From the NCBI GenBank assembly GCA_029262195.1, contig JAJCZX010000021.1:1-64000 (forward strand): a stretch of 64,000 nt of DNA, in the 5' to 3' direction. This DNA is from Gemmatimonadota bacterium (GTDB lineage: Bacteria; Gemmatimonadota; Gemmatimonadetes; Gemmatimonadales; GWC2-71-9). The translations under genes were made by a program, and so were the position numbers. Below, in pieces: positions 14,633 to 15,944 of the stretch. A model generated the notes under the pieces. That model was not told the origin of the DNA and made no database searches. It saw only the letters and a list, made by a program, of their open reading frames with translations. Position 1 is the first letter of the stretch, and each line of letters starts with the position of its first letter.

Positions 14633-15711
14633 CCGTCACCCAGACAGACGCCCAGGTCCCGAGCCGTTTGGACTGTATCCGCCCCAAGCGGGACGGTTTT
14701 CAGTTGCCCGATTCCGTCTTTGATCGGCATCGTCAATACCTCCTGGCCAGCAAACGTGACCATTTTTCCAAACTCGCCTCTTTCCGCTGCGCGAACCGCA
14801 GCAGCGCCAAACCTGACCGCAAGGAGGCGGTCGAAGGTTGTGGGTGAACCGCCTCTCAACAAATGGCCGAGCGTTAGTGTCCGTGTTTCTTTTCCGGTTT
14901 TGGCGTGGATTGCGTTCGCAACCAATTCAGCTATTCCACCAAGCCGCTCGACCCCTCCGGGCTCTCCGGGATCTCTCAGGCTAACACCACCGTCCTTAGG
15001 GGCGGCGCCTTCAGCTACAACCACTATGGAAAACGGGATGCCCCTGGCCTCTCGATCACGGACTTTCTTGCAAACGGATTCGATGTCGTATGGGATTTCG
15101 GGGATGAGGATCACGTCAGCGCCACCCGCCAATCCCGAGTGTAGGGCGATCCACCCCGCGTTCCTTCCCATTACTTCAACAACCAGGACGCGCTCGTGGC
15201 TTTCAGCCGTAGTGTGTACCCGATCTAGAGCCTCGGTGGCGATGGAGACTGCGGTGTCGAACCCGAAAGTCACATCCGTGGCACCCACGTCATTGTCAAT
15301 CGTTTTAGGCACTCCGATCACCGGAAGACCAAGCTCAGAAAGCTTTTGCGTTATGGCCAGTGTGCCGTCTCCACCAATCGCGATGAGGCAGTCGAATCCT
15401 CGCTCCCTGAACACAGCCGCTAACTCTGCAGACCTGTCCTCTTCTCTCCACTTGCCGTCCAACCCCAGGAGTGGCCAACGAAACGGATTCCCCCGGTTGG
15501 TTGTACCGAGGATTGTACCGCCCTGGTGGATAATGCCACGGACGTTTTTTGATTTAAGCCTGATTATGCGCGCGTCTCCAAGAAGTCCACCGAACCCCCG
15601 GCGACTTCCGTACATCTGGAAGCCCTTGGTAAGACCCGAGGAGACCGCTCCCTTAATAACGGCATTCAGGCCCGGCGCATCTCCACCCCCGGTAGCAATT
15701 ACTATTTTCAA
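14629..15711 (-). CDS. pfkA: 6-phosphofructokinase (PfkA family)
   Basis: ATGGGDAPGLNAVIKG, IGGDGTL, GVPKTIDNDV, EVMGRNAGWIAL; TTG start overlapping the upstream stop. Confidence 0.9.
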   Translation of the reverse strand: MKIVIATGGGDAPGLNAVIKGAVSSGLTKGFQMYGSRRGFGGLLGDARIIRLKSKNVRGIIHQGGTILGTTNRGNPFRWPLLGLDGKWREEDRSAELAAVFRERGFDCLIAIGGDGTLAITQKLSELGLPVIGVPKTIDNDVGATDVTFGFDTAVSIATEALDRVHTTAESHERVLVVEVMGRNAGWIALHSGLAGGADVILIPEIPYDIESVCKKVRDREARGIPFSIVVVAEGAAPKDGGVSLRDPGEPGGVERLGGIAELVANAIHAKTGKETRTLTLGHLLRGGSPTTFDRLLAVRFGAAAVRAAERGEFGKMVTFAGQEVLTMPIKDGIGQLKTVPLGADTVQTARDLGVCLGDG

Positions 15712-15944
15712 GAAGTTTCCGTTTTTTCGTTTAGCAGGCTCATGACTTCGCCGTCAAAAGGGTGTCTCCCGAGTCGCAGTTTCGAAAACACAGGTTCCCC
15801 GTCGACTGCAACTTCGAACACTCCGCCGGCGCCTTCAACCAAACGTATCCGGGCATCCGGGTAGGCCGTCTTGATCTCAACCTCCAAACTGGAGGCTCGC
15901 GGTTTGTAGTTTCAAACGCCACAATACTGTATGGTAACGTCCAT
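15708..15944 (-). CDS. SelW/Rdx-family selenoprotein, in-frame UGA read as Sec
   Basis: MDVTIQYCGV(U)NYKPRASSLEVEIKTAYPDARIRLVEGAGGVFEVAVDGEPVFSKLRLGRHPFDGEVMSLLNEKTETS*; CxxU motif, GVFEV..DG..VFSK..GR core; SD ggaga upstream. Confidence 0.85.
15879..15897 (-). promoter_or_regulatory. Candidate bacterial SECIS hairpin
   Basis: AGCCTCCA-GTT-TGGAGGTT, 8-bp stem (one G-U), G first in loop, loop begins 22 nt after UGA. Confidence 0.65.

What the first reader, a model, noticed from the sequence alone, without database searches (positions are those of the whole stretch)
15708..15944. Unannotated SelW/Rdx-family selenoprotein gene with an in-frame UGA
Seen: minus-strand frame from ATG 15944 reads MDVTIQYCGV-TGA-NYKPRASSLEVEIKTAYPDARIRLVEGAGGVFEVAVDGEPVFSKLRLGRHPFDGEVMSLLNEKTETS-stop, codon by codon, with a single internal TGA at 15912-15914. 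Known: SelW/Rdx proteins have a CxxC or CxxU redox motif (mammalian SelW starts ...VVYCGAUGYK...), and here the UGA is exactly the second redox position (C-G-V-U). The downstream GVFEV.VDG..VFSK...GR pattern is the conserved Rdx core. The stop overlaps the TTG start of pfk (TTGA), suggesting translational coupling. The ORF track instead lists out-of-frame ORFs (15740..15922 -, 15762..16037 +), so standard callers would miss it.
Basis: partly seen in the sequence, partly recalled or inferred. Interest (0 to 1): 0.9.

Follow-up and report, generated by a model that had tools for sequence, protein, structure and literature searches.

The report
SelW-like selenoprotein gene in a Gemmatimonadales bacterium

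Summary
Observation confirmed exactly: a minus-strand frame at 15708-15944 with one in-frame TGA at 15912-15914, reading C-G-V-U. It is a real SelW/Rdx-type bacterial selenoprotein (Pfam Rdx E=1.3e-18; NCBIfam NF041051 over its cut-off). The genome has tRNA-Sec, selA, selB and a selD that itself carries a Sec UGA. An in-frame TGA occurs in this gene in 114 of 151 genomes of the order (window's included). The only full-length form seen there without it is in G144, a complete genome with no tRNA-Sec, selA or selB over cut-off: the same gene, still directly before pfk, has Cys and has lost the SECIS loop. A SECIS hairpin begins 17 nt after the UGA's first base. It has compensatory changes, including one in the window's own copy, and four nearly invariant fourfold-degenerate sites. 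Sequencing error and pseudogene are effectively excluded. The gene directly precedes pfk in most loci examined, often with a 4-nt overlap. Bacterial SelW-like selenoproteins have been known since about 2005, and SelW was shown experimentally in Campylobacter jejuni. I found no paper describing this one in Gemmatimonadota. New member of a known kind; modest interest.

The parts
15708..15944 (-). selW-like CDS, 78 aa plus stop, Sec at residue 11
15912..15914 (-). in-frame UGA read as selenocysteine (second redox position of CGVU)
   Evidence: Cys at this place in G144, which lacks the Sec machinery
15879..15897 (-). bacterial SECIS hairpin: 8-bp stem AGCCUCCA/UGGAGGUU with apical GUU, beginning 17 nt after the UGA's first base; conserved core [A/G]GUYU
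15950..15953 (-). GGAG, Shine-Dalgarno-like, 5 nt before the ATG
   Evidence: read from sequence; not tested
14629..15711 (-). pfk (phosphofructokinase), TTG start overlapping the selW stop (TTGA)
   Evidence: PF00365 E=8.9e-103

Best explanation
A functional SelW-like selenoprotein gene. SelB with Sec-tRNA-Sec binds the hairpin directly downstream of UGA 11 and inserts selenocysteine, giving a 78-aa thioredoxin-like-fold protein with a CxxU redox motif. The protein most likely works as a small selenol/thiol oxidoreductase, and is cotranslated with the following pfk gene. Shown computationally: family, UGA conservation, SECIS conservation with compensatory changes, full Sec machinery, Cys replacement where the machinery is gone, and conserved order with pfk. 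Inferred: actual Sec incorporation in this organism, the redox role, and the coupling to pfk.
For: Rdx/SelTWH family over curated cut-offs and solved Rdx/SelW relatives. tRNA-Sec 70.5 bits with UCA anticodon, selA 506 bits, selB 347.6 bits over two pieces of one frame, selD 369.7 bits with its own Sec at GAGU. TGA in 114 of 151 genomes of the order (with G144 taken out); presence of the TGA gene and of tRNA-Sec associate, 102/12/12/25, Fisher p about 4e-11, not corrected for relatedness. G144, 100% complete in one contig, lacks tRNA-Sec, selA and selB over cut-off, and its gene has CVGC and a lost SECIS loop. SECIS: observed 5.73 of 6 stem pairs against 4.58 +/- 0.13 under synonymous redraw, zero or near-zero entropy at fourfold sites of codons +6, +7, +9 and +10 against 0.98-1.96 elsewhere in the gene, three pairs with changes on both sides.
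Against: No direct protein or RNA evidence. The hairpin of the window sequence alone is not exceptional by folding energy (z -1.3 to -1.6), nor by synonymous redraw (P 0.15); its support comes from comparison. Twelve genomes with the TGA form gave no tRNA-Sec match; four of the five tested for selA have it and the fifth has selB, so assembly gaps or missed tRNA genes are likely there, but seven were not tested further.
Confidence: 0.96

Rival explanations
1. The TGA is a sequencing error or a recent nonsense mutation in a Cys-type Rdx gene (pseudogene).
For: The standard-code frame is interrupted.
Against: The same TGA in more than 110 independent genomes, with codon-like substitution on both sides and a conserved SECIS.
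Confidence: 0.01
2. UGA is read as another amino acid (near-cognate readthrough, or reassigned code).
For: An in-frame UGA could in principle be read by a suppressor; no tool result points to it.
Against: Complete Sec machinery; SECIS conserved; Cys substituted where the machinery is absent; UGA is also the terminal stop of this gene.
Confidence: 0.01
3. The full-length form is minor and the gene mainly serves to couple or regulate pfk by Se-dependent readthrough (a selenium-responsive leader).
For: SelW lies directly upstream of pfk in 22 of 31 examined loci, 9 of them with a 4-nt overlap of stop and start; readthrough would be needed to bring ribosomes to the overlap.
Against: The protein sequence downstream is strongly conserved, and the Cys form is kept before pfk in G144, where regulation through Sec decoding is not expected, so the protein itself is under selection; the arrangement is not universal.
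Confidence: 0.05

Closest known systems
Bacterial SelW-like selenoproteins (Sargasso Sea set, PMC1088965; PMC1794560)
   Same: Rdx family, CxxU with Sec from in-frame UGA, bacterial SECIS directly downstream; Sec form dominant and Cys homologues rare in Sec-decoding bacteria
   Different: Different phylum (nearest named relative is a Gemmatimonadales genome, L051); placed before pfk
Campylobacter jejuni SelW / NCBIfam NF041051 SelTWH_Campy
   Same: About 80 aa; the window protein passes the model cut-off (93.7 against 88 bits); also missed in annotation; in C. jejuni full translation past the UGA was shown by Ribo-seq and proteomics (PMC11955535, PMC4607533)
   Different: Organism and gene neighbourhood; here no experiment
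Mammalian selenoprotein W (PDB 2npb)
   Same: CxxU redox motif near the N-terminus, Rdx family (E=0.0023)
   Different: SECIS in the 3' UTR in eukaryotes, inside the reading frame here; low sequence similarity

Membership tests
SelW/Rdx (PF10262, TIGR02174, NF041051) | Profile match over curated cut-off | tested here: met
   67.4 bits against 22.6; 65 against 34.2 and 93.7 against 88
SelW/Rdx (PF10262, TIGR02174, NF041051) | CxxC or CxxU redox motif near the N-terminus | tested here: met
   CGVU at residues 8-11; conserved in relatives
SelW/Rdx (PF10262, TIGR02174, NF041051) | Thioredoxin-like fold and redox activity | not tested
   Sequence relatives with solved structures only; no model or assay made
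Bacterial selenoprotein | selA, selB, selD and tRNA-Sec in the genome | tested here: met
Bacterial selenoprotein | SECIS hairpin just downstream of the UGA with G in a small apical loop | tested here: met
Bacterial selenoprotein | Homologues with Cys aligned to the UGA | tested here: met
   G144 Cys form in a genome without Sec machinery
Bacterial selenoprotein | Selenium in the protein | not testable with these tools
   needs 75Se labelling or mass spectrometry

The most novel reading that the evidence does not exclude
The conserved selW-pfk pair, with overlapping stop and start, makes phosphofructokinase output depend on selenocysteine readthrough, or reflects a functional tie between SelW and glycolytic control in Gemmatimonadales.
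Probability: 0.1. Interest if true: 0.5.

Novelty: new member of a known kind. Interest (0 to 1): 0.3.

Why it matters
It is a clean case of a selenoprotein that standard gene callers miss, and it shows that Sec-type SelW is the usual form across an order (and class) of bacteria. The Cys replacement in a relative that lost Sec decoding is a tidy natural control for Sec/Cys exchange. The link with pfk is a testable lead on what bacterial SelW does.

Tried and rejected
Sequencing error, pseudogene and code reassignment: rejected on conservation, SECIS and machinery. Single-sequence folding was uninformative, so the SECIS case rests on comparison. G144 was first counted as a TGA carrier; the TGA reported in its hit was the terminal stop and the gene is a Cys form, so the counts were corrected. 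A phage search found nothing. Two literature searches for Gemmatimonadota selenoproteins gave nothing specific, in a library that lacks most subscription journals.

Full report
What is there. With U read as Cys the protein matches Pfam Rdx (E=1.3e-18), TIGR02174 and NF041051 'SelT/SelW/SelH family (seleno)protein', all over their cut-offs, and solved members of the family including selenoprotein W.

The genome can decode it. The window's assembly (4.2 Mb, 92.6% complete) has a tRNA-Sec with UCA anticodon (70.5 bits), selB, selA and selD. SelD itself reads LSHGAGUACK with an in-frame TGA at the catalytic position, so the genome holds a second, independent Sec codon. The best formate dehydrogenase alpha match is without an internal stop.

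The UGA is old and selected. Of 151 genomes of the same order (the window's own included), 116 have a match; 114 carry an in-frame TGA in it (corrected; the position was read directly in the loci). Across a wider draw of the phylum almost all Rdx matches again have one TGA and only two have none. The nearest named relative is a Gemmatimonadales genome (L051, 60% identity), and Sec forms also turn up in records titled Acidobacteria, Chloroflexi, Planctomycetia and Melghirimyces (sequences). Presence of the gene with TGA and presence of tRNA-Sec associate strongly (102 both, 12, 12, 25 neither; Fisher p about 4e-11, without correction for relatedness). Of the 12 TGA genomes without a tRNA-Sec match, five were tested for selA: four have it and the fifth has selB.

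A natural control. Genome G144 (same order, one contig, 100% complete) has no tRNA-Sec match, no selA and no selB over cut-off. Its gene reads ...ALCVGCNYQPRAAALAATL..., with Cys in place of U, is still followed directly by pfk, and has lost the apical-loop sequence of the SECIS (GCGTT in place of [A/G]GTYT). That is what is expected if the UGA of the others encodes Sec.

The SECIS. Beginning 17 nt from the first base of the UGA, the window folds AGCCUCCA-GUU-UGGAGGUU. Relatives have GCCGCC-[A/G]GUYU-GGCGGC at the same place. The window's own U-A at the fourth position of the six-pair stem, against G-C in most relatives, is a change on both sides; three of six pairs show such changes, and sliding the partners destroys the signal. 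Because the stem lies in coding sequence, I asked whether protein constraint explains it: with synonymous codons redrawn, 4.58 of 6 pairs are expected and 5.73 observed (sd 0.13). The fourfold sites at codons +6, +7, +9 and +10 have entropy 0 to 0.21 bits against 0.98 to 1.96 at other fourfold sites outside the hairpin. The redraw treats sequences as independent and the window alone is not significant, so this is evidence for the family rather than for the one copy. The loop resembles that of the E. coli fdhF SECIS (own knowledge).

Neighbourhood. pfk follows directly in 22 of the 31 loci examined (L051 and L026 are near-identical, and one contig ends too early to tell), in 9 of them with a 4-nt overlap, and in several more fetched later. 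Upstream on the other strand lies an OmpA/thrombospondin-repeat protein here and in L051. Coupling or a functional link is possible but untested.

What it is. A SelW-like bacterial selenoprotein, a kind described in 2005-2006 (PMC1088965, PMC1794560; the latter notes that SelW-like proteins have few or no Cys forms in Sec-using bacteria), often missed in annotation (PMC4607533), and shown to be translated past its UGA in Campylobacter jejuni by Ribo-seq and proteomics (PMC11955535). I found no paper on it in Gemmatimonadota in the library searched. Its biochemical role, selenol/thiol redox chemistry, is inferred from the family.

Noticed in passing
L018:1531-1533 (G000:C1, selD): selD of the same genome has an in-frame TGA at its catalytic position (GAGU-ACK), followed by a stable hairpin.
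   Followed up: partly
L073 (G144:C1:2897200-2898000): Sec-to-Cys replacement of selW in a complete genome without tRNA-Sec, selA and selB over cut-off, with decay of the SECIS loop and the pfk neighbour kept.
   Followed up: yes
window 14629-15711: The pfk product has GGDGT together with PKTIDND, a mixture of the usual ATP-type and PPi-type signature residues (own knowledge of the signatures), so its phosphoryl donor is not clear.
   Followed up: no
genera g35 and g47: Several near-complete genomes of these two genera show no selW, and those listed show no tRNA-Sec (g35), which looks like separate losses of selenocysteine use within the order; G035 and G097 also lack selA.
   Followed up: partly
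L058 (G166) and L059 (G122): Rdx matches without an internal stop; G122 also has the TGA form, so a second Cys-type paralogue exists in the phylum.
   Followed up: no
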